Positions 179 through 22,873 of a DNA stretch of 22,873 bases are shown here, in pieces. The position numbers and the translations under genes were made by a program. The stretch's first letter is position 1, and every line of letters begins with the position of its first letter. Source of the stretch: a virus; IMG/VR virus record IMGVR_UViG_3300030107_002980, positions 1-22,873 of that record, one strand, 5' to 3'. The notes under the pieces are model-generated. The model ran no database searches. It saw only the letters and a list, made by a program, of their open reading frames with translations, and was not told the origin of the DNA.

Positions 179-460
179 ATGGACACAAAAGAAAAACATC
201 TTTTAGTTTTCTCGGCTAACTGGTGCGGACCATGTAGAATGATGAAGTCTACAGTATGGAATGACCCAGAAGTAAAAGATAAACTAGAAGTTTTTGACTC
301 TGTTAACTTTATAGATATAGACGCGCCTGAATCGAGGCAGCTAACTACTATGTATAAAGTTAATGCAGTTCCAACTATTTACATAGTAGACGAGAAGGGT
401 ATTCCAGTAAAAGCTGGTAATACGATGGATGTTTCAAGAACAATTAGTTTTCTGAGTTAA
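179..460 (+). CDS. Thioredoxin-like protein with CGPC active site
   Basis: This is a 93-residue single-domain thioredoxin-fold protein, somewhat shorter than the usual ~105 residues. The active site is W15-C16-G17-P18-C19, followed by RMMK, and a cis-proline segment (NAVPTIYIV) follows, as in the classical fold. There is no signal peptide, so it should act in the cytoplasm as a dithiol reductant. The likely partner is the phage ribonucleotide reductase 3.5 kb downstream, whose C-terminal CxxC needs re-reduction; that link is inference. It is the first gene after the terminator. GGGA at 166-169 is a weak possible ribosome binding site. A second thioredoxin-fold gene starts 1 nt after its stop. 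Confidence 0.9.
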   Translation: MDTKEKHLLVFSANWCGPCRMMKSTVWNDPEVKDKLEVFDSVNFIDIDAPESRQLTTMYKVNAVPTIYIVDEKGIPVKAGNTMDVSRTISFLS

Positions 461-461
461 C

Positions 462-761
462 ATGGATAAAAACAATTTACAAGTAGTAGTATTTATGACC
501 ACTTGGTGTCCTCATTGTAAAAACATGAAAAATTACACTTGGTCTAATGATTCAGTAAAAAGTGCTGTCATGCCTTACCATAACAGTAAACCGGCTTTTG
601 TTTTGTGTGATAAGCCACAAAATAGGTACTTAGTAGATGAGTTCAGTATAGAAAAGTACCCAACGGTGGTCATCATGGATGAAGATCACAACATAAAAAA
701 GAAGGCTAATAACATGTCTCCAGAAGAACTTGTTTCATTTTTAGATTCATTAGATGAATAG
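462..761 (+). CDS. Thioredoxin-fold protein with CPHC active site
   Basis: The product has 99 residues with W15-C16-P17-H18-C19 in the same position as the CGPC of the preceding gene, and a cis-proline segment EKYPTVVIM. CPHC is best known from DsbA-like oxidases, where the His destabilises the disulfide and makes the protein more oxidising, but there is no signal peptide here and the size fits thioredoxin or glutaredoxin. It probably arose from an old duplication of the first gene, or is a second redoxin with a different partner. The start ATG lies 1 nt after the upstream stop, and its own stop overlaps the next start, so translation is probably coupled. Confidence 0.82.
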   Translation: MDKNNLQVVVFMTTWCPHCKNMKNYTWSNDSVKSAVMPYHNSKPAFVLCDKPQNRYLVDEFSIEKYPTVVIMDEDHNIKKKANNMSPEELVSFLDSLDE

Positions 762-10865: not shown

Positions 10866-11925
10866 TGCAGCATTAAAAACCATTACTAAAAAGTACGGAA
10901 ATATATTAGTGAATGGAGCTGATGTATTTGAAGAACTACAAGACATGCAGGTTATACCTGTAAGTCCATCTCTAGACTATGCTCTTGGTGGTGGTTTTCG
11001 AGAAGGAACTTGGATTCAAATGATTGGAGATCCAAAGTCTGGAAAAACAACTACAGCTCTACAGTTCGCTGCGAACTGTCAGAAAAAAGAATATGGAGAA
11101 AGACCCATATTTTATGTCAATGTAGAAGGTAGATTAAGCACAAAGAACTTTGAAGGAGTTCATGGCTTAGATGCCAGCAAGATTACCGTAGTGCAGTCTG
11201 AAACAGAAACACTTAGCGCAGAGAAGTATCTGGGCGCTATAGAAAAAATAGTAAAAGCTCATCCTAATTGTGTTGTTATTATTGATTCAATATCTAGCTT
11301 TATAGCACAGAAAGATTTAGATGAAGAAGTGAGAGGTGATTACAGGCCGGGAGTTCCTAAGATATTGTCTAATTTCTGTAAGAAGATGAGTAGTGTGGTT
11401 CCTAAACAAAGAGCCATCATTATCATGATTACACACTTTATTGCCAATACTGGCGGTATGGGAAAGAAGAAAGTAGCCGATGGCGGCGTAAAGGTTCGCT
11501 ACCAAGCAGACACGATATTGGAAATTGCTTGGATTCAAGCATGGAAAGAAAAGAATGATGGCCGACAAATCGGACAAGCATTACACTGGAAAGTAATTAC
11601 CTCTGCGCTTGGGGGTTTTGTGGGAGCAGAAGCTATTGGATGGCTTCGCTACGGCACAGGTATTGATTACAAGCAAGAGTTGTTCGATCAAGCAAACGAC
11701 TTCGATTTGATTTCCGCAGCCGGAGCTTGGTACACATGTGATTTTTTAGTCGATAACCCGAAACCTATAAAAAAACTTTTAGAAGCCGAAGGAATCGAAA
11801 AAGATGATGAAGAAAAGATTACTAAATTGGTCAAGTTTCAAGGTCAGCAAAAGCTCAGGGCTTTTCTTGATGAACACGACCTATGGCCTGCTTTGCAAAA
11901 TTCATTAAAGGAAATGTTGTCTTGA
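10858..11925 (+). CDS. recA: RecA/UvsX-like recombinase
   Basis: The product has 355 residues. It binds ssDNA and catalyses strand exchange with ATP. Seen: an N-terminal helical part, the ALGGGFREGTW lead-in, Walker A GDPKSGKT (residues 57-64), the strand FYVNVEGRL carrying the Glu equivalent to the catalytic Glu of RecA, Walker B VVIIDSISSF, and the THFIANTGGMGKKKVADGG / YQADTILEI region in the place of the DNA-binding loops. Walker A differs from the RecA consensus (GPESSGKT), which places it with diverged phage RecA/UvsX proteins. It begins the recombination/replication block and is followed by a nuclease in a TTGA overlap. Confidence 0.88.
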   Translation: MSDAALKTITKKYGNILVNGADVFEELQDMQVIPVSPSLDYALGGGFREGTWIQMIGDPKSGKTTTALQFAANCQKKEYGERPIFYVNVEGRLSTKNFEGVHGLDASKITVVQSETETLSAEKYLGAIEKIVKAHPNCVVIIDSISSFIAQKDLDEEVRGDYRPGVPKILSNFCKKMSSVVPKQRAIIIMITHFIANTGGMGKKKVADGGVKVRYQADTILEIAWIQAWKEKNDGRQIGQALHWKVITSALGGFVGAEAIGWLRYGTGIDYKQELFDQANDFDLISAAGAWYTCDFLVDNPKPIKKLLEAEGIEKDDEEKITKLVKFQGQQKLRAFLDEHDLWPALQNSLKEMLS

Positions 11926-12344
11926 AAGCCATAGGTTTTGATGGCCGAGAAAGAAATTGGAACCTATCAAAGTGCGTAGTTTCAGGAGATCAGACAAGAC
12001 CTCGAAGTAAATTGCATATTTTAGCAAGAAAATTACTCCATGAGCAGTTTCCTTATGATACAATCCTTGAAGAAGTGCCGCTTGTCGGCTCACATAAGCC
12101 ATCAAGAAAATCTACCTTGTACGTTGATTTCTTGATACCGTCACATTCTCTGGCGGTAGAAGTACACGGGCGACAGCATTTTGAATTTGTCGCCCATTTT
12201 CATGGTAATCGTCAGGGCTTTAGAAAGTCAAAAGCTAGAGATAGGGATAAAGCAAATTGGCTTTATAACAACGACATAGAACTTATAGTCTTGAGTTATT
12301 CAGGAACAGAAGATGAATGGCGAAAATCAATTATCAATAGATAG
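11922..12344 (+). CDS. Vsr/DUF559-like endonuclease
   Basis: The product has 140 residues from TTG 11922, which overlaps the recombinase stop (TTGA) and has AAAGGA 9-10 nt upstream; an ATG at 11883 lacks a Shine-Dalgarno sequence and would add 13 residues. The core reads LARKLLHEQFP, ILEEVPLVG, STLYVDFLIPSHSLAVEVHGRQHFE, then LIVLSYSG. This is the E...D-x(n)-E-V-x-G-x-Q-H arrangement of the Vsr/DUF559 branch of PD-(D/E)XK nucleases. Such enzymes cut DNA in repair or recombination. Next to RecA it most likely resolves or processes recombination intermediates, which is inference. Confidence 0.72.
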   Translation: MKAIGFDGRERNWNLSKCVVSGDQTRPRSKLHILARKLLHEQFPYDTILEEVPLVGSHKPSRKSTLYVDFLIPSHSLAVEVHGRQHFEFVAHFHGNRQGFRKSKARDRDKANWLYNNDIELIVLSYSGTEDEWRKSIINR

Positions 12345-15843: not shown

Positions 15844-16597
15844 AATACTAGGATTCTCTGGCGCAAAACAAAGTGGAAAGAGTACATGCTGTAAGTTTAT
15901 ACATGGGTATCAATTAAGACTAAATGATGTAGTCAAGAAGTTTTTTATGGACGAAGAAGGTTCCCTTCTAGTAAATGCTACGCAAATAGATGAACATGGA
16001 AATGAAGTGGAAGGACTAGGAGTTCTTGACATTGAGAGGCAAGATGAAGAATTCGTAGAATATGCAGCACAAGCAATATGGCCTTATGTTAGATCGTTTA
16101 GCTTTGCCGATCCACTAAAAATAATAGCAGTCAATTTATTTGGATTAAAAGCAGAACAGTGCTATGGATCAGATGAAGATAAGAATACTCCTGTAAATAT
16201 TAAGTGGGAAGATATGCCGGGTGTTGCAAATCATTCTGGTTTTATGACCGCAAGAGAGTTCTTGCAGTATTTTGGTACAGATATCTGTAGACGTATAAAG
16301 CCCGACATTTGGACAGGTTCTTGCTTGCAGAGAATACTTTCAAGCGGTACTGAATTTGCCATTGTTCCTGATGTTAGATTCCCTAACGAAGTTGAAGCAA
16401 TACAAAAAGCTGGAGGAAAAGTGATCAGACTCACCAGAAAGCCTTTTGAAGATGCTCATTCAAGCGAAACGTCTTTAGATGCTAAAGAGGAAATATTTGA
16501 CCATGTATTAGACAATAGTGAGAAGGATCTTCACGAAACTAACTTAGCTCTCATGGAAGTATTAAAGGATTGGGGATGGCTAACAACAAAATCATAA
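15836..16597 (+). CDS. Deoxynucleoside monophosphate kinase (T4 gp1-like)
   Basis: The product has 253 residues from ATG 15836, overlapping dnaG by 8 nt. The P-loop GFSGAKQSGKST is at residues 6-17. Later segments fit the phage dNMP kinase family: KIIAVNLFGLKAEQCYG, MTAREFLQYFGTDICRRIKP, IVPDVRFPNEVEAIQKAGG and VIRLTRKP...HSSE. The enzyme phosphorylates dNMPs (in T4, dTMP, dGMP and modified dCMP) to dNDPs for DNA synthesis. Together with RNR and dUTPase it completes the visible dNTP supply, and it sits inside the replisome operon rather than beside nrdAB. Confidence 0.85.
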   Translation: MTKILGFSGAKQSGKSTCCKFIHGYQLRLNDVVKKFFMDEEGSLLVNATQIDEHGNEVEGLGVLDIERQDEEFVEYAAQAIWPYVRSFSFADPLKIIAVNLFGLKAEQCYGSDEDKNTPVNIKWEDMPGVANHSGFMTAREFLQYFGTDICRRIKPDIWTGSCLQRILSSGTEFAIVPDVRFPNEVEAIQKAGGKVIRLTRKPFEDAHSSETSLDAKEEIFDHVLDNSEKDLHETNLALMEVLKDWGWLTTKS

Positions 16598-17145
16598 GTA
16601 TACCTTGGGATGACAGAATGGTCACTCGCGCTCAAAAGAAAGCGAAGAGTCTTGGAAGAATAAGGAACTCAATATTGAGAGGTGGTGGAAATGCCGCCGG
16701 TTACTTAGGAGAGGAAGCTGTAGCATCTTATATTGGAGCAGAAATAACTAGCTGTAATAAAGGCTCAGATAAATATGACTACGATATCATAGCTAGAGAT
16801 GGTCGTAGGGTAGAAATAAAAACAAAAAGAAGAACAGTTTATCCACAGGAACACTTTGATGTGTCCGTCGCTAAGACGAGCGTTCATCAAAGACCTGATT
16901 TGTATATTTTTGTAAGTATTGAATTTGCTAAGGTGACGATGGAAAACGGAAAACGTGTCTATCGTAACATCAAAAGTATTTGCATCTTGGGGCAGGCAGA
17001 GCCTGAAGATTTTTTTGCGAGAGCCAAAATTTGGCGAGAAGGTGATATTGATGGTAGAAATGGTTTTAAAACACATGTAGATATGTATAATTTGCCCATA
17101 TCGGAAATAGATCCGTTAGATGATAGTTTGTTACCACAGAAGTAG
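16576..17145 (+). CDS. PD-(D/E)XK-type endonuclease
   Basis: The product has 189 residues from ATG 16576 (AAAGGATTGGGG upstream); it overlaps the kinase by 22 nt. The core motif is a helix GGGNAAGYLGEEAVASYIGAE, then YDYDIIARDGRRVEIKTKRRT. The Asp in the YDYDI strand and the E-x-K in VEIKTK make the classic metal-dependent nuclease active site, with an aromatic substrate-binding stretch (VYPQEHFDV) after it. The family is not identifiable beyond the fold; it could be a Holliday-junction-type or restriction-like nuclease. In the replisome operon it most likely takes part in replication or recombination. Confidence 0.72.
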   Translation: MANNKIISIPWDDRMVTRAQKKAKSLGRIRNSILRGGGNAAGYLGEEAVASYIGAEITSCNKGSDKYDYDIIARDGRRVEIKTKRRTVYPQEHFDVSVAKTSVHQRPDLYIFVSIEFAKVTMENGKRVYRNIKSICILGQAEPEDFFARAKIWREGDIDGRNGFKTHVDMYNLPISEIDPLDDSLLPQK

Positions 17146-18136
17146 TAGTCTTGGCACTTTAGAATTTTGTCAGCAAAAATACTTTTTGCAGTACAATCTT
17201 TCGTTCAAAGACAAAACTAACGCAAAAGCCTTGATGGGTACTATTACTCATAAAGTTATGCAAACTCTTGGAGACAAGAAAGTTGCAATGAATAAAGGTC
17301 TTGATGTTGTAGAAGATGAAGAAACTGGAAGAAATCTAACTCTAGAAGAGTGTGACGATCTTGAGCTTCTAAACAACATAGCTTTTGATTATTACACAAA
17401 CGCTTTTCCAGAGGTCAGCCTTGGAGAAAAAGAAAAAAGACAATGCCTTCGCTGGGCAGAGAAGGCGGTAGCATATCAAGATGGACTACTAGACCCCAGA
17501 AATCAAAACGTGTTTGCTACCGAGTTATTTTTTGACATAGAAATAAAAAAACCTTGGGCAAAATACAAGTATGAGTTTGAAGACCAGACGATTGAAGGAT
17601 ACCTGTCAATCAAAGGCACTGTAGACTTAATCCTTAAACAAGGAGAAGACTACTATGAAATACTAGATTACAAAACCGGAAAACGGCTAGACTGGGCGAC
17701 CGGAGAAGAAAAGACTTATGAAAAGCTACAGAAAGATACGCAACTTCTTCTTTACTACTATGCTCTCAAGAACATGTATCCAGAAAGAGAATTTTCAGTA
17801 AGTATATATTACATCAATGCTGGCGGATTATTCTCAATGGTGTTTGATGAAAGTGATTACGAAAAGGCTGAATCTATACTGAGGAAAAAATTTGAGCAGA
17901 TAAGAGACATTCAACAGCCTAGACTTCTCTCTAATGAAAACAAACATTGGAAGTGTCAAAAGCTTTGTAAGTTCAGTGGTGAATATCAAGATTCAGGCAA
18001 GAGTATATGCCAACACATAAGAGACGAAGTTAAAGAAAAAGGCGTAGTCAAAGTTGTTGAAGAGTACGGAAAAATTGAAAAGATCGCCACTTATGGAGAT
18101 GGCGGCGGAAGATTAGCAGAAGATAATAAAAAATGA
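17120..18136 (+). CDS. RecB/Cas4-like exonuclease with Fe-S-type cysteines
   Basis: The product has 338 residues. RecB-family nuclease motifs appear in order: SSLGTLEFCQQKYFLQY (C17), GTITHKVMQTL, GTVDLILKQGEDYYEILDYKTGK (catalytic D and E-x-D-Y-K) and DTQLLLYYYALK. Four cysteines (C17, C279, C283, C297), one before and three after the nuclease core, match the 4Fe-4S arrangement of Cas4/AddB-like nucleases. It is expected to degrade or resect DNA ends. No cas genes or CRISPR repeat are nearby, so this is a phage nuclease rather than a CRISPR factor. ATG 17120 lies in the end of the previous nuclease gene, and its TGA overlaps the dnaE start. Confidence 0.85.
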   Translation: MIVCYHRSSSLGTLEFCQQKYFLQYNLSFKDKTNAKALMGTITHKVMQTLGDKKVAMNKGLDVVEDEETGRNLTLEECDDLELLNNIAFDYYTNAFPEVSLGEKEKRQCLRWAEKAVAYQDGLLDPRNQNVFATELFFDIEIKKPWAKYKYEFEDQTIEGYLSIKGTVDLILKQGEDYYEILDYKTGKRLDWATGEEKTYEKLQKDTQLLLYYYALKNMYPEREFSVSIYYINAGGLFSMVFDESDYEKAESILRKKFEQIRDIQQPRLLSNENKHWKCQKLCKFSGEYQDSGKSICQHIRDEVKEKGVVKVVEEYGKIEKIATYGDGGGRLAEDNKK

Positions 18137-20046
18137 GTTGGACACCTTTACACTTACATACACACTACAGTCTTTTGGATGGCCTCAGTAAGCCCTCGCA
18201 GGTCGCTGAGCGATGTTCTAGCTTAGGCTATACCTCCTGCGCCTTAACCGATCACGGCACTATATCAGGCGCTGTGGCCTTTACGCAGGCAATGAAGAAA
18301 AAGAATATCAAACCTATTCTTGGGTGTGAGTTCTACCTAAGCCAGCAAGATTGCAAAATAAAGTCCGACGAAAATAGAAGCCTGAGTCATTTATGTGTGC
18401 TTGCTAAAAATAGAAAAGGTTGGGACAGCCTGATCCAAGCAGTATCTAAAAGTAATGACGAGGAAAATTACTATTACAAGCCAAGGCTAGACCTTGCCGA
18501 ATTAAACCTTTTTGCAGATGGTAACTTAATATCTTACAGCGGACATCTTGGTAGCGACTTAGCGAACGCAATATTTGTAGATCCAAAATCTGCTTATAAC
18601 GCAAAAACAGAAGAGGAGGCTAAAAGATATACGCATCCAAACTGGGATAGTGAAGTATTAAAGATTGCAAACAGATATAGAACTATATTTGGCAAAGAAA
18701 ACTTTTTTATTGAGATACAAGCTATCGACCAAGGCAATTCTCCAGCAGCAAAGTTGGTAGTTCAAGGTCTACGATACATAGCCAAAAAGTATAAATTTCA
18801 AACTGTTGCAACCGCAGATTCACACTATCCAGAAAAGAAAGATGCAAACGACCAGTTATTACTGCTTTGTTCTGCACTAAAAACAACTCTACCTAAAATC
18901 AAGAAAAAGCTAAGAGAATCTGGAGAAGCTGCATTTGCCGGTTTTCTAAAGTCTAATAACTTTCATATTCCATCTCTTGAAGAAATACAAAATGTAAACA
19001 CGCCACAAGAAATAGAAAACTCAATGCTAATAGCTAGTATGTGCGAAGACTACAACATACTAGGCAAACCTATGCTTCCTAAGTTCAAATGTCCCAAAGA
19101 CTTTTCAGAAGATCAATATCTAAGACACTTATGTAGAGAAGGCTGGAAAAGCAGATTAGCGCCCACAGGAAAAGTTAATACCGAGCAAAGTAAGCAGGTA
19201 TATGCAGACCAAATTAAGAAAGAGCTTGATGTCATTAGCGAAGCAAACCTAGCTGGCTACTTCTTAATAGTTAGAGACATTGTCAACAGTGTAGTTGATA
19301 AGAATCATATTCCCGGACCGGGAAGAGGTTCGGCTGCTGGATGTTTAGTATCATATTTAGTAGGAATAACTCAGGTAGACCCAATTGAATATGGATTGCT
19401 GTTTGAGAGGTTTTATAACGCTGGTAGAAATTCAGAAGATCATGTATCCTTGCCTGATATTGATATAGACGTTCCAGCTAATAAAAGAGATGAAACAATA
19501 GACTATATACGAAGCAAGTACGGGAGTGAAAAAGTTGGACAAATGGTAACATTTGGAAGATTGCAAGGTCGAGGCGCAATCAAAGAAGTTTTGAGAATGA
19601 ACGAAGCTTGTGGTTATGACCAAATGAATGAAATAACAAAAAGTCTTCCTCATGAGCATGAAGTGTCCGACCAACTAGCAGAAATGGATAATCCATCTGT
19701 AATTAAATGGACTCTCATGAACCAACCGGAAACACTTCGTGGTTATTGTAGATTAAATGATGACGGTGTTCTTGAAGGCGATTACGCTAAATTTTTCGAT
19801 CAAGCTATGAGGATAGAAGGGACTTTCAAGTCACAAGGCAAACACGCTGCTGGCGTAGTAATATCCTCTCATGACCTTAATGAAGTTTGCCCAATGGTAA
19901 GAGACAAAAGAGGTAGCGAGAAAATAGCTGGAATGGAAATGAATGACTTAGAGTCTATGGGGCATGTAAAATTTGATATTCTTGGTATTTCACTAATGGA
20001 CAAAATGATGGGAATTAGAGATCAACTAAAGGTAAGAAATGGATAA
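18133..20046 (+). CDS. dnaE: DNA polymerase III alpha, N-terminal half (PHP + palm)
   Basis: The product has 637 residues with the N-terminal PHP domain (LHLHTHYSLLDG, LTDHGTISG, GCEFYL, TADSHYPEKKD) and the palm: IPGPGRGSAAGCLVSYLVG, catalytic aspartates in PDIDID (residues 441-446), VGQMVTFGRLQGRGAIK, KHAAGVVISS, and the third catalytic Asp D615 in VKFDILG. It ends 22 residues after D615 with LKVRNG, exactly where bacterial DnaE continues into the fingers. The rest is encoded by the gene at 20921. All PHP metal-ligand motifs appear conserved, unlike E. coli DnaE. No intein sequence is present at the end. ATGA overlap with the RecB-like gene; polymerase at the replication fork. Confidence 0.94.
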   Translation: MSWTPLHLHTHYSLLDGLSKPSQVAERCSSLGYTSCALTDHGTISGAVAFTQAMKKKNIKPILGCEFYLSQQDCKIKSDENRSLSHLCVLAKNRKGWDSLIQAVSKSNDEENYYYKPRLDLAELNLFADGNLISYSGHLGSDLANAIFVDPKSAYNAKTEEEAKRYTHPNWDSEVLKIANRYRTIFGKENFFIEIQAIDQGNSPAAKLVVQGLRYIAKKYKFQTVATADSHYPEKKDANDQLLLLCSALKTTLPKIKKKLRESGEAAFAGFLKSNNFHIPSLEEIQNVNTPQEIENSMLIASMCEDYNILGKPMLPKFKCPKDFSEDQYLRHLCREGWKSRLAPTGKVNTEQSKQVYADQIKKELDVISEANLAGYFLIVRDIVNSVVDKNHIPGPGRGSAAGCLVSYLVGITQVDPIEYGLLFERFYNAGRNSEDHVSLPDIDIDVPANKRDETIDYIRSKYGSEKVGQMVTFGRLQGRGAIKEVLRMNEACGYDQMNEITKSLPHEHEVSDQLAEMDNPSVIKWTLMNQPETLRGYCRLNDDGVLEGDYAKFFDQAMRIEGTFKSQGKHAAGVVISSHDLNEVCPMVRDKRGSEKIAGMEMNDLESMGHVKFDILGISLMDKMMGIRDQLKVRNG

Positions 20047-20260
20047 GAAGACTAGCTACAGACAAAACGTAAAAGACAGAATCAAGTCAGGAAGGTACGT
20101 TGATTACAAAAGCTTATCAATTTGTAGAATCAATGACTTCTATCCATTGATGCATGGGAAAATTAGATACCAAGTACATTCTCATTTTTTCAGTAAGCTA
20201 TACGAAAACATTGACGAAGCGTTAGATAAATTTTTTGAGATTAGAAGGAAGATAAGATGA
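20039..20260 (+). CDS. Small basic protein inside split dnaE (73 aa)
   Basis: The product has 73 residues: MDKKTSYRQNVKDRIKSGRY, then VDYKSLSICRINDFYPLMHG and KIRYQVHSHFFSKLYENIDE, ending in EIRRKIR. It is basic and probably alpha/beta with a helical end. I do not recognise it. It has no intein blocks. The ATG overlaps the stop of the N-terminal dnaE gene by 8 nt, and its TGA overlaps the exonuclease ATG (ATGA), so all four genes from the dnaE N-half to the dnaE C-half are likely co-translated. A role in holding the polymerase halves or exonuclease together is possible but only from position. Confidence 0.6.
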   Translation: MDKKTSYRQNVKDRIKSGRYVDYKSLSICRINDFYPLMHGKIRYQVHSHFFSKLYENIDEALDKFFEIRRKIR

Positions 20261-20940
20261 ATTACAAAGACATTATTGTTTTTGACTTTGAAACAGGTTC
20301 GAGAAACCCAGAAAAAACGCAGCCTATACAAATAGCCGCTGTAGCAATACATGGTCGTAAGCTGACAGTCCAGCCAGACGGCTACTTTGAAAGTTTAATG
20401 CGACCTATTCTCGACGACGAAGAAGCAATCAAAATGGGTCTAGACCCAATCGAAGACGAAGCATTGGCTGTAAATGGCAAAACAAGAGCAGAGCTTGCAA
20501 AAGCTCCTTCAGAACGGACTGTATGGAAAAAATTCACGAACTTTGTGAATAAATACAACTGGAAAGGAACTCCTTACTTTGCCCCGATTGCAGCAGGTTA
20601 TAACATCGTTGGCTTTGATATGCCGATTGTCCAAAGAATGTGTGAACTATATGGGCCAATCGACAAGAAAACAGGAAAGCAGACGCTCTTTAACAAAATC
20701 CACAGGATTGACGTAATGGATAATGTCTGGATGTGGATGGAAAATAATGCAGATGTTAGGTCATTGAGTATGGACTCAATGCGAGACTTATTTGGTATGA
20801 GTAAAGAAAATGCTCATGATGCTTTGCAAGATGTTAAGGACACGGCCAATCTAATGATTGGCTTTATGAAACTGCATAGAAGAATTGCACCGAAGATTAA
20901 ATTTGAAAAGGCTTTTGCTGATGGAAACCTCCACATTTGA
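20257..20940 (+). CDS. DEDDh 3'-5' exonuclease (epsilon/DnaQ-like)
   Basis: The product has 227 residues. The DEDDh exonuclease motifs are clear: Exo I IIVFDFETGS with D10 and E12, Exo II AGYNIVGFDMPIV with D121, Exo III NAHDALQDVKDT with H187 and D192. This is the fold of DnaQ/epsilon, the Pol III proofreading subunit. Lying between the two halves of alpha, and overlapping the C-half start by 20 nt, it most likely proofreads for this polymerase. In PolC the same type of domain is inserted inside the polymerase chain itself; here it is a separate gene. Confidence 0.93.
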   Translation: MNYKDIIVFDFETGSRNPEKTQPIQIAAVAIHGRKLTVQPDGYFESLMRPILDDEEAIKMGLDPIEDEALAVNGKTRAELAKAPSERTVWKKFTNFVNKYNWKGTPYFAPIAAGYNIVGFDMPIVQRMCELYGPIDKKTGKQTLFNKIHRIDVMDNVWMWMENNADVRSLSMDSMRDLFGMSKENAHDALQDVKDTANLMIGFMKLHRRIAPKIKFEKAFADGNLHI

Positions 20941-22513
20941 ACCACTTGAGCTTGGATTTGAAGATGAAAAAGCTTGGGATTTAATATGCTCAGGAAAAAC
21001 AAAAGGTGTTTTTCAACTAGAGAGTAACTTAGGTAAGTCTTGGGCTAAAAGAGTTCAGCCAAAAAATATTGAAGAACTATCTGCTCTAATATCAATTATT
21101 AGACCCGGAACATTGAAGGCCATTGTAGATGGCAAATCAATGACTCAGCACTATGTTGATAGGAAGAATGGGGTGCAAGAAATAACTTATCTTCACCCAT
21201 CCCTTGAGCCAATCCTTAAAAAGACTCAAGGAGTTCTTGTATACCAAGAACAATCTATGCAGATTGCACAACAGTTGGCAGGCTTTAACCTTCAAGAAGC
21301 CGACAATCTACGTAAAGCTATCGGTAAGAAAAAAGCAGACCTTATGGCTAAGGTTAAAGAGGATTTTCTAAAAGGAGCCTCTAAACAAGGAATTATCACG
21401 ACGGAAGAAGCCGAAGAGATTTTTAGCTGGATTGAGAAGTCTAGTCGCTATGCTTTTAATAAGTCCCATGCCGTATCTTACGCTATATGTGCATATTGGA
21501 GCGCTTATGCTAAGGCTCACTTTCCGCTAGAATTCTATTGCAATTACCTCATTCATTCTTCTGGTAAACCAGATCCGCAACAAGAAGTAAGAGAGCTAGT
21601 CAACGACGCTAAGAATCTAGAAATATATGTAAATCCGCCATCAATAAAATCTTTGAACACACAGACAGATATAATCGAAGATCGAATACATTTCGGCCTA
21701 ATAGATATAAAATCTGTTGGAGCAAGGCAAATTGATAAATTTAGAGACGCAATAGTATATCTAGAGCAAACTTTAGGCAAGCAGCTTTGTGAAGTTAGTT
21801 GGTACGAGTTTCTTGTTTTAGTTTCACAAAAAATTAATTCAAGGATGTTAACAGCTTTGATATCAGTAGGATTCTTTGCGGATTTTCCAGAGAGTAGGCA
21901 GCAAATGCTAGACGAGTTTGATACTTGGTCAAACATAACTAAGAAAGAGGCTGAATGGGCAGAAGATAACTTTGAAAGCTATAGCAACTTAGTAGATTTG
22001 CTTAAAGCTATGGCTCCTGTTAAAAAAGATGGAGGAGCAGCATTTAACTCAAAGCGCTCTCAAATAATTTCTGATTTAGTAATCCAATGTGAAAATCCAT
22101 CTTATTCGCTAAAAGACGATCCTGAATGGGTTATCAGAACCGAAGAGAACTATTTAGGAATAGGGCTTACATACTCAAGAGTAGAAGCTTATGACACAAG
22201 CTTAGCCAACACAACTATCAAAGAATTTATTAATGGTAAAAGAGGCAATGTTAAAATGGCTGTTACCATAAATGAAGTTAAGAAATACACCGTTAAAAAA
22301 GGTAAGGCTGTTGGTCTTGAAATGGCTTTTTTATGCGTCGAAGATACGACAGGTACTATGGATAGCGTTACGGTCTTCAGTGACCAATGGGACAAATATA
22401 AAAATATTTTATACGAAGGGAATAACGTTGTCTTGATTGGGCAAGATTCAAAAAAGAAAAGATATCAATTAGACGATGGCTTTATAGTTAATGAAGTCAT
22501 TGAATTACGTTGA
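20921..22513 (+). CDS. dnaE: DNA polymerase III alpha, C-terminal half (fingers to OB fold)
   Basis: The product has 530 residues from ATG 20921 (AAAAGG upstream); a TTG at 20885 would add 12 residues of poor match. The start LELGFEDEKAWDLICSGKTKGVFQLES aligns with DnaE directly after the palm region lost from the other half. Fingers follow: VLVYQEQSMQIAQQLAGF, NLRKAIGKKKADLMAK and SSRYAFNKSHAVSYA. A helix-hairpin-helix-like region comes next and a C-terminal OB fold (about the last 100 residues, VKMAVTINEVKK ... VLIGQDSKKKRYQL). No obvious QxxLF clamp-binding motif is seen. The site of the cyanobacterial DnaE split intein (before the CFN of their FNKSH region) is intact here, so this is a different break. 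Confidence 0.93.
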   Translation: METSTFEPLELGFEDEKAWDLICSGKTKGVFQLESNLGKSWAKRVQPKNIEELSALISIIRPGTLKAIVDGKSMTQHYVDRKNGVQEITYLHPSLEPILKKTQGVLVYQEQSMQIAQQLAGFNLQEADNLRKAIGKKKADLMAKVKEDFLKGASKQGIITTEEAEEIFSWIEKSSRYAFNKSHAVSYAICAYWSAYAKAHFPLEFYCNYLIHSSGKPDPQQEVRELVNDAKNLEIYVNPPSIKSLNTQTDIIEDRIHFGLIDIKSVGARQIDKFRDAIVYLEQTLGKQLCEVSWYEFLVLVSQKINSRMLTALISVGFFADFPESRQQMLDEFDTWSNITKKEAEWAEDNFESYSNLVDLLKAMAPVKKDGGAAFNSKRSQIISDLVIQCENPSYSLKDDPEWVIRTEENYLGIGLTYSRVEAYDTSLANTTIKEFINGKRGNVKMAVTINEVKKYTVKKGKAVGLEMAFLCVEDTTGTMDSVTVFSDQWDKYKNILYEGNNVVLIGQDSKKKRYQLDDGFIVNEVIELR

Positions 22514-22573: not shown

Positions 22574-22873
22574 ATGAATACGATTTCAAACTATTGCAGA
22601 TTTATCGGAAGATTAACAGACGACCCTAAAGTCGTTGAATTTGAAAATACAAATCTTTGCACTTTTACTTTAGCTATTAATGAATATAGAAAAGAAAAGA
22701 ACGGAGATAAGAAGAAGACTGTCAACTATTTTGATTTTGAAGCTTGGGATTCTGGCGGAGAGACGATTAGTCGATACTGTTCTAAAGGAGATATAATTGA
22801 TTTAGTCGCTTCTGCAAGAAACAACTCTTGGATTGACAAAAGTGGACAAAAAAGATATTCGACAAAATTCAGA
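22574..22873 (+). CDS. ssb: Single-stranded DNA-binding protein, partial (runs off window)
   Basis: The first 100 codons are present, with no stop before the window end. The sequence MNTISNYCRFIGRLTDDPKV ... CTFTLAINEYRK ... TVNYFDFEAWDSGGETISRYCSKGDIIDLVASARNNSW matches the bacterial-type SSB OB fold (GRLTxDP, F.lAvN, W...GE.I..Y..KGd). It coats ssDNA at the fork and for RecA-mediated recombination. The C-terminal acidic tail cannot be checked because it lies outside. It is separated from dnaE by 60 nt, so it may have its own promoter; TATAAATG at 22554-22561 is a weak candidate. Confidence 0.92.
   Translation, partial: MNTISNYCRFIGRLTDDPKVVEFENTNLCTFTLAINEYRKEKNGDKKKTVNYFDFEAWDSGGETISRYCSKGDIIDLVASARNNSWIDKSGQKRYSTKFR

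What the first reader, a model, noticed from the sequence alone, without database searches (positions are those of the whole stretch)
18133..22513. Pol III alpha (DnaE) split into two genes, with the exonuclease gene in the gap and no intein
The N-half (637 aa) ends 22 residues after the third catalytic Asp (VKFDILG), and the C-half (530 aa) starts at the fingers (LELGFEDEKAW). Together they add to about 1,167 aa, the length of a normal DnaE. Neither edge has an intein splice motif, and the site used by the cyanobacterial DnaE split intein is intact in the C-half. The catalytic palm and the dNTP-binding fingers would therefore meet as separate polypeptides. The gap holds a 73-aa gene and a DEDDh proofreading exonuclease, with 8-, 4- and 20-nt overlaps that suggest fixed stoichiometry. 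This arrangement is unusual and might be a previously undescribed split replicative polymerase.
Basis: partly seen in the sequence, partly recalled or inferred. Interest (0 to 1): 0.78.

Follow-up and report, generated by a model that had tools for sequence, protein, structure and literature searches.

The report
Phage replicase split into two proteins
A large, mostly uncultured group of marine and freshwater phages makes its only recognisable DNA-copying enzyme as two separate proteins, with the proofreading-enzyme gene between them and nothing to splice them together; this matters because the break runs between the catalytic and nucleotide-binding parts of the enzyme and has been kept throughout the group.

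Summary
The window encodes a bacterial-type Pol III alpha (DnaE) as two intact ORFs: PHP-palm-thumb, 637 aa, and fingers-HhH-OB, 530 aa. Between them lie a 73-aa ORF and a DEDDh exonuclease gene. No intein, intron or frameshift rejoins them. The break falls in the palm-fingers linker and little or nothing of the family model is lost.

It is not an artefact or a decayed gene. Of 287 ORFs carrying the C-half (147 clusters at 95% identity) none is fused to an N-half. Catalytic residues are invariant in 135 representatives, dN/dS is 0.01-0.13 where measurable, and on two sets of 20 contigs (18 shared) there is one split DnaE each and no PolA or PolB. The clade is monophyletic on a long stem.

p73 is dispensable and the gap is not fixed: in relatives it holds HNH endonucleases, methyltransferases or a 6-kb metabolic cassette. 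Best model: a permanent gene-in-pieces whose halves reassemble non-covalently, as reported for phage gp43A/43B and NrdA, probably with the exonuclease as third core subunit. Split Pol III alpha is not wholly new (jumbo phages; three isolate records). New here are the N-exo-C operon, its breadth, and its status as sole detected replicase. Function is inferred.

The parts
18133..20046 (+). DnaE N-half: PHP, palm and thumb, 637 aa, with PGRGS, PDIDID (D442, D444) and VKFD (D615)
   Evidence: PF02811 2e-37, PF07733 8e-70; catalytic residues invariant in 135 representatives
20039..20260 (+). p73, small ORF of unknown function, conserved in the marine subclade only
   Evidence: homologues in 45 gap-ORF sequences; under purifying selection; absent in L099-L124; no Pfam or PHROG match
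20257..20940 (+). DEDDh 3'-5' exonuclease (presumed epsilon-like proofreading subunit), 227 aa
   Evidence: PF00929 5e-16, PHROG 'DNA polymerase exonuclease subunit'; D, E, D, H and D residues invariant in 135 of 135
20921..22513 (+). DnaE C-half: fingers, HhH, OB fold, 530 aa
   Evidence: PF17657 3e-49, PF14579; AF2 model matches Taq, M. tuberculosis and E. coli Pol III alpha; fingers motifs invariant
17120..18136 (+). upstream neighbour: Cas4/RecB-like PD-(D/E)XK nuclease, overlaps the N-half by 4 nt (context)
   Evidence: PF12705 4e-23
22574..22873 (+). downstream neighbour: SSB, cut by the window end (context)
   Evidence: PF00436 3e-16

Best explanation
A permanently split (gene-in-pieces) C-family replicase. 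Shown by sequence: one ancestral break in dnaE at the palm-fingers linker; both pieces kept intact under purifying selection with every catalytic motif; an exonuclease gene kept between them; no splicing element; no other family A or B polymerase and no second DnaE detected on the long contigs searched. Inferred: the N-half (PHP-palm-thumb) and C-half (fingers-HhH-OB) are translated separately and dock non-covalently across the normal palm-fingers interface to form one active site; the exonuclease binds this core, probably the N-half's PHP domain through its conserved C-terminal [KR]AFA[DN]G tail, and proofreads. Origin (inferred, less certain): an insertion event, plausibly a free-standing homing endonuclease, broke dnaE at a tolerant linker, and the exonuclease came to lie, or already lay, in the gap.
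For: No fusion among 287 C-half ORFs, 147 clusters at 95% identity. A pattern for a fused gene with the clade's ESNLG motif gave 0 hits in IMG/VR, while the generic fused pattern gave 42. PGRGS, the palm Asps, VKFD, YQEQ, LRKAIGKK and FNKSH are invariant or nearly so in 135 representatives. dN/dS 0.01-0.13 for all four genes where dS is not saturated. N and C distance matrices correlate at r = 0.87. No PolA or PolB in 20 contigs of 53-176 kb, and one C-half and one N-half (split further in L042 and L044) in each of 20 contigs of 30-176 kb, 18 of them shared. The clade is monophyletic, support 0.976, stem 0.50. The split sits just before E. coli alpha residue 584, in a linker. The gap holds Endo VII-like and other HNH endonuclease genes in relatives. 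Precedent: split phage polymerase gp43A/43B co-purifies and is active, and split NrdA is active (PMC2988022).
Against: No biochemistry. No complex could be predicted: two separate AlphaFold jobs only, the N-half at pLDDT 51 and the C-half at 70 with residues 31-90 of its fingers below 50. No homing endonuclease is in the window itself, and no clade member with an unbroken gene was found to prove the order of events. Correlated distances also arise from plain co-inheritance.
Confidence: 0.8

Rival explanations
1. The exonuclease is an obligate structural bridge: palm half, exonuclease and fingers half form a three-polypeptide core in which the proofreading subunit holds the two halves together.
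For: An exonuclease lies between the halves in essentially every locus where the region is covered, over the whole clade. Its C-terminal tail stays conserved even where it no longer overlaps the C gene. It is the slowest-evolving of the four genes.
Against: Gene order alone does not show contact. Independent splits at the same linker (phiT1) have no exonuclease in the gap. Split gp43 is not reported to need a bridge.
Confidence: 0.2
2. The halves are joined after transcription or translation by a cryptic split intein, an intron, or a frameshift.
For: True inteins, one of them split, do occur at other dnaE sites in the L041-L044 lineage.
Against: No intein family on either half; no Rfam intron; two complete conserved genes lie in the gap; where the gene is broken inside the catalytic loop the intein is easily detected.
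Confidence: 0.03
3. Assembly artefact, or a decayed polymerase next to another intact one.
For: The window is a fragment with only 22.9 kb visible.
Against: Same arrangement in 147 distinct clusters, purifying selection, no other polymerase found on long contigs.
Confidence: 0.02
4. The split polymerase is auxiliary (repair or one strand only) and the phage relies on the host replicase.
For: The C-half appears to lack the tau-binding C-terminal domain; host dependence cannot be excluded from sequence.
Against: The same window carries RecA, DnaB helicase, primase and SSB, a nearly complete replisome in which DnaE is the only polymerase seen.
Confidence: 0.12

Closest known systems
Split minimal Pol III alpha of group 2.2 jumbo phages (PMC7824862)
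   Same: Pol III alpha catalytic unit encoded as separate N and C proteins thought to reassemble
   Different: There the version is minimal, lacks the other DnaE domains, is encoded at distant loci and accompanies a PolB; here it is near full length, in one operon with an exonuclease, and the only polymerase detected
Split PolB gp43A/43B of Aeromonas phages 25 and 44RR (Petrov 2010, via PMC2988022)
   Same: Replicative phage polymerase in two polypeptides without an intein; in phage 25 a homing endonuclease gene is associated with the split
   Different: B family; no proofreading gene reported in the gap; shown biochemically
Genes-in-pieces NrdA of phage Aeh1 (Friedrich 2007, via PMC2988022)
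   Same: Enzyme split within a functional region, re-forming without splicing
   Different: Ribonucleotide reductase; the homing endonuclease is still in the gap
Cyanobacterial split-intein DnaE and 'fractured genes' (Dassa 2009, title seen in PMC3229294; details from memory)
   Same: dnaE (or another conserved gene) in two genes
   Different: There trans-splicing rejoins the chain; here no intein; the site used in cyanobacteria is uninterrupted
Rossellomorea phage phiT1 gp20/gp19/gp18 (PV767480)
   Same: DnaE split at the same linker, with a 49-aa ORF in the gap
   Different: Separate lineage on the tree; no exonuclease in the gap

Membership tests
C-family DNA polymerase III alpha (DnaE) | PHP, palm with three catalytic Asp, fingers, HhH, OB in this order | tested here: met
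   order met across two genes
C-family DNA polymerase III alpha (DnaE) | Single polypeptide | tested here: not met
   no fused ORF in the clade; so it is filed as a split variant of DnaE, not as an ordinary DnaE
C-family DNA polymerase III alpha (DnaE) | C-terminal tau-binding domain | tested here: inconclusive
   The best profile match ends at E. coli residue 1056 of 1160, suggesting absence; not tested structurally
Split-intein (cyanobacterial-type) DnaE | Intein N and C fragments at the break | tested here: not met
   junction alignment
Genes-in-pieces by homing endonuclease insertion | Contiguous ancestral gene broken into complementary ORFs at one point | tested here: met
Genes-in-pieces by homing endonuclease insertion | Homing endonuclease gene in the gap | tested here: inconclusive
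   Absent in the window; Endo VII-like (12 gap ORFs), HNH_3 and HNH-like ORFs in the gaps of relatives
Genes-in-pieces by homing endonuclease insertion | Pieces form an active enzyme | not testable with these tools
   Needs co-expression and assay
Jumbo-phage split minimal Pol III alpha | Distant loci, minimal domains, PolB present | tested here: not met
   Neighbouring genes, PHP present, no PolB on 20 contigs
PolC | Exonuclease domain embedded in the polymerase chain | tested here: not met
   The exonuclease is a separate ORF; PolC models score far below DnaE models

The most novel reading that the evidence does not exclude
A three-polypeptide core replicase in which the proofreading exonuclease is the clasp that holds palm and fingers halves together, so that polymerisation and proofreading are coupled by assembly itself.
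Probability: 0.2. Interest if true: 0.8.

Novelty: new variant of a known kind. Interest (0 to 1): 0.57.

Why it matters
If the halves work together, C-family polymerases tolerate a chain break between the palm and the dNTP-binding fingers, and a widespread group of aquatic phages replicates with such an enzyme as its only detected polymerase. It would give a natural split Pol III for dissecting fingers motion and proofreading handoff, and a clean evolutionary contrast: in one lineage of the same clade, a second break inside the catalytic loop is accompanied by a split intein while the linker break never is. It also warns that gene callers and phylogenies that expect one dnaE will miscount these phages.

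Tried and rejected
Assembly artefact, decay, chance: rejected. Intein, intron or frameshift rejoining: rejected for the window. Fixed stoichiometry from overlaps: rejected, since gap sizes and content vary. p73 as a necessary subunit: rejected for the clade, absent in the freshwater-type subclade. p73 as an AP2-like relic of a homing endonuclease: a thought from its strand-strand-strand-helix look; Pfam, PHROG and PDB searches gave nothing, left open. Named close relatives: none; best phage-collection matches were about 36% (N) and 31% (C), and the exonuclease found nothing at 1e-5. AlphaFold of the N-half was too poor to use. Search for an unbroken sister gene in the clade: none. Intron in the L042 extra break: no Rfam support. 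The original 'fractured genes' paper was not held.

Full report
What is there. The window (an IMG/VR virus record of 22,873 bp) carries, on the + strand, RecA, a DnaB helicase, a Toprim primase, a deoxynucleotide kinase, a Cas4/RecB-like nuclease, then the polymerase cluster, then SSB. The polymerase cluster is N-half 18133-20046, p73 20039-20260, exonuclease 20257-20940, C-half 20921-22513, with overlaps of 8, 4 and 20 nt. The N-half has PHP and the Pol III alpha NTPase (palm/thumb) domain; the C-half has fingers and HhH by Pfam and an OB fold by its model and by alignment to E. coli alpha 947-1056. The AF2 model of the C-half (pLDDT 70) matches Taq, M. tuberculosis and E. coli Pol III alpha in Foldseek.

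Where the break is. Against TIGR00594 the N-half ends at position 565 and the C-half starts at 581; against NF004226, 562 and 586. About 15 model positions are unmatched but a similar number of unmatched residues is present at the two new ends, so little or nothing is missing. In E. coli numbering the C-half match begins at residue 584. This is the linker that leads from the last palm helix into the fingers (structural statement from general knowledge of Pol III alpha). No intein or intron model matches.

It is real and conserved. The first scans gave 23 N-half loci, 20 C-half loci, 80 by a C-half profile and 80 by an exonuclease profile, with overlap between them; a DNA pattern scan added 79 new loci. 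Every locus with enough sequence is split. Of 287 ORFs with the C-half none carries the N-half; they form 147 clusters at 95% identity, the most distant at 36% identity to the window. A pattern for a fused gene with the clade's ESNLG signature gave no hit, whereas a similar pattern without it gave 42 hits, most of them fused dnaE genes, which serves as control; it requires an AAA lysine codon and a set spacing, so the negative is limited. Catalytic residues are invariant over 135 representatives in both halves and in the exonuclease. dN/dS is 0.01-0.13 for all four genes where synonymous sites are not saturated; many comparisons are saturated and were not used. On 20 contigs of 30-176 kb there is exactly one fingers match and one N-half region (split again in L042 and L044); separate searches of 20 contigs of 53-176 kb (18 shared) found no PolA and no PolB. 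The contigs are not known to be complete, so absence is not proof.

One ancestral split. With 50 other DnaE sequences, mostly of phages, the 135 split representatives are monophyletic, support 0.976, on a stem of 0.50. Splits in Rossellomorea phage phiT1 (same linker, 49-aa ORF in the gap), Cellulophaga phi19:2 and Bacillus phage Jayan fall elsewhere in the smaller tree and look independent. Splitting dnaE has therefore happened several times in phages.

What sits in the gap. In one subclade (L099-L124 type) p73 is missing and in many members N, exonuclease and C follow each other directly, so p73 is not essential to the arrangement. Elsewhere the two gaps hold Endo VII-like HNH endonuclease genes (12 ORFs), HNH_3 and other HNH-like ORFs, TylF-like methyltransferases, a uracil-DNA-glycosylase-like ORF, or in L083 and L088 a 6-kb run of metabolic genes (UDP-glucose dehydrogenase, saccharopine dehydrogenase and class III aminotransferase by Pfam; aldehyde dehydrogenase by inspection). 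The halves are thus independent genes, and the gap is a place where free-standing endonucleases and cargo land. That fits, but does not prove, an origin by homing endonuclease insertion.

An internal contrast. The L041-L044 lineage keeps the same linker break but has, in addition, a break in the catalytic loop at PGRG|SAAG. There the first piece ends in a sequence that passes NCBIfam's intein N-terminal cut-off (30.6 against 24.5 bits) and matches Pfam Intein_splicing below its cut-off, the second piece begins with a 35-residue tail ending HN|S, and a Vsr-like ORF lies between (C-tail and Vsr-like reading by inspection). The same lineage has an in-frame insert of about 125 aa at FNK|SHA in the C-half that looks like a cis intein (sub-threshold match). 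So within one clade the break inside the active-site loop comes with an intein and the break in the linker does not.

How it most likely works. Inference: the halves are translated separately from one operon and dock across the palm-fingers interface; the exonuclease binds the core and proofreads. Its C-terminal [KR]AFA[DN]G tail is conserved also where it does not overlap the next gene, which suggests a protein function, perhaps PHP binding as for E. coli epsilon (from memory). Precedent that split phage replicases and reductases work without splicing: gp43A/43B co-purify with polymerase activity, and split NrdA is active (PMC2988022).

Known or new. A split minimal Pol III alpha has been reported in jumbo phages, in distant genes next to a PolB (PMC7824862). 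The present system differs in domain content, operon, exonuclease and lack of another detected polymerase. Paper searches found no description of it, within an open-access library only. I rate it a new variant of a known kind.

Limits. No activity, no complex, no host and no isolate are known. AlphaFold of the N-half failed (pLDDT 51) and multimers were not available.

Noticed in passing
L044 2426-4697 and 5968-7950: dnaE with a split intein at PGRG|S with a Vsr-like ORF between its halves, plus an in-frame insert of about 125 aa at FNK|SHA that looks like a cis intein; the same gene also has the non-intein linker break.
   Followed up: partly
L044 8737-11442: A glycosyltransferase-like ORF appears to contain a large intein (CLTPNTNIV... 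to HN|C).
   Followed up: no
L042 2836-3300: A further ~470-nt interruption of the palm just before LPDIDID, with a stop; no Rfam intron match. Insert, recombination or misassembly.
   Followed up: partly
L083 and L088, between the N-half and the exonuclease: About 6 kb of metabolic genes (aldehyde dehydrogenase, class III aminotransferase, UDP-glucose dehydrogenase, saccharopine dehydrogenase and others) inserted between the halves of the polymerase.
   Followed up: partly
L009, L010, L022, L033, L062, L064, between exonuclease and C-half: TylF-like methyltransferase gene inserted in the gap.
   Followed up: partly
L099-L124 N-halves: PHP domain shortened by about 110 residues and apparently without metal ligands, while it looks intact in the marine subclade; proofreading may have shifted wholly to the exonuclease.
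   Followed up: no
L133, L135, L136 (phiT1, Cellulophaga phi19:2, Bacillus phage Jayan): Independent dnaE splits in isolated phages, two of them with a small ORF in the gap; an isolate such as phiT1 could be a bench model.
   Followed up: partly
L219 (SAR202 MAG contig, 152,655 bp) and L220 (Flavobacteriales MAG contig): Clade members binned into bacterial MAGs, possible host hints or mis-binned phage.
   Followed up: no
window 11883-12344: 153-aa ORF overlapping the end of recA that reads like a Vsr/DUF559-type nuclease; no Pfam match.
   Followed up: no
window 16570-17145: 191-aa ORF that looks related to ORFs that land in the dnaE gap of relatives (L192, L204, L206, L103, L217): perhaps a mobile nuclease-like gene; no Pfam match. 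Resemblance by eye only.
   Followed up: partly
window 179-760: Two tandem thioredoxin-like ORFs with CGPC and CPHC motifs.
   Followed up: no
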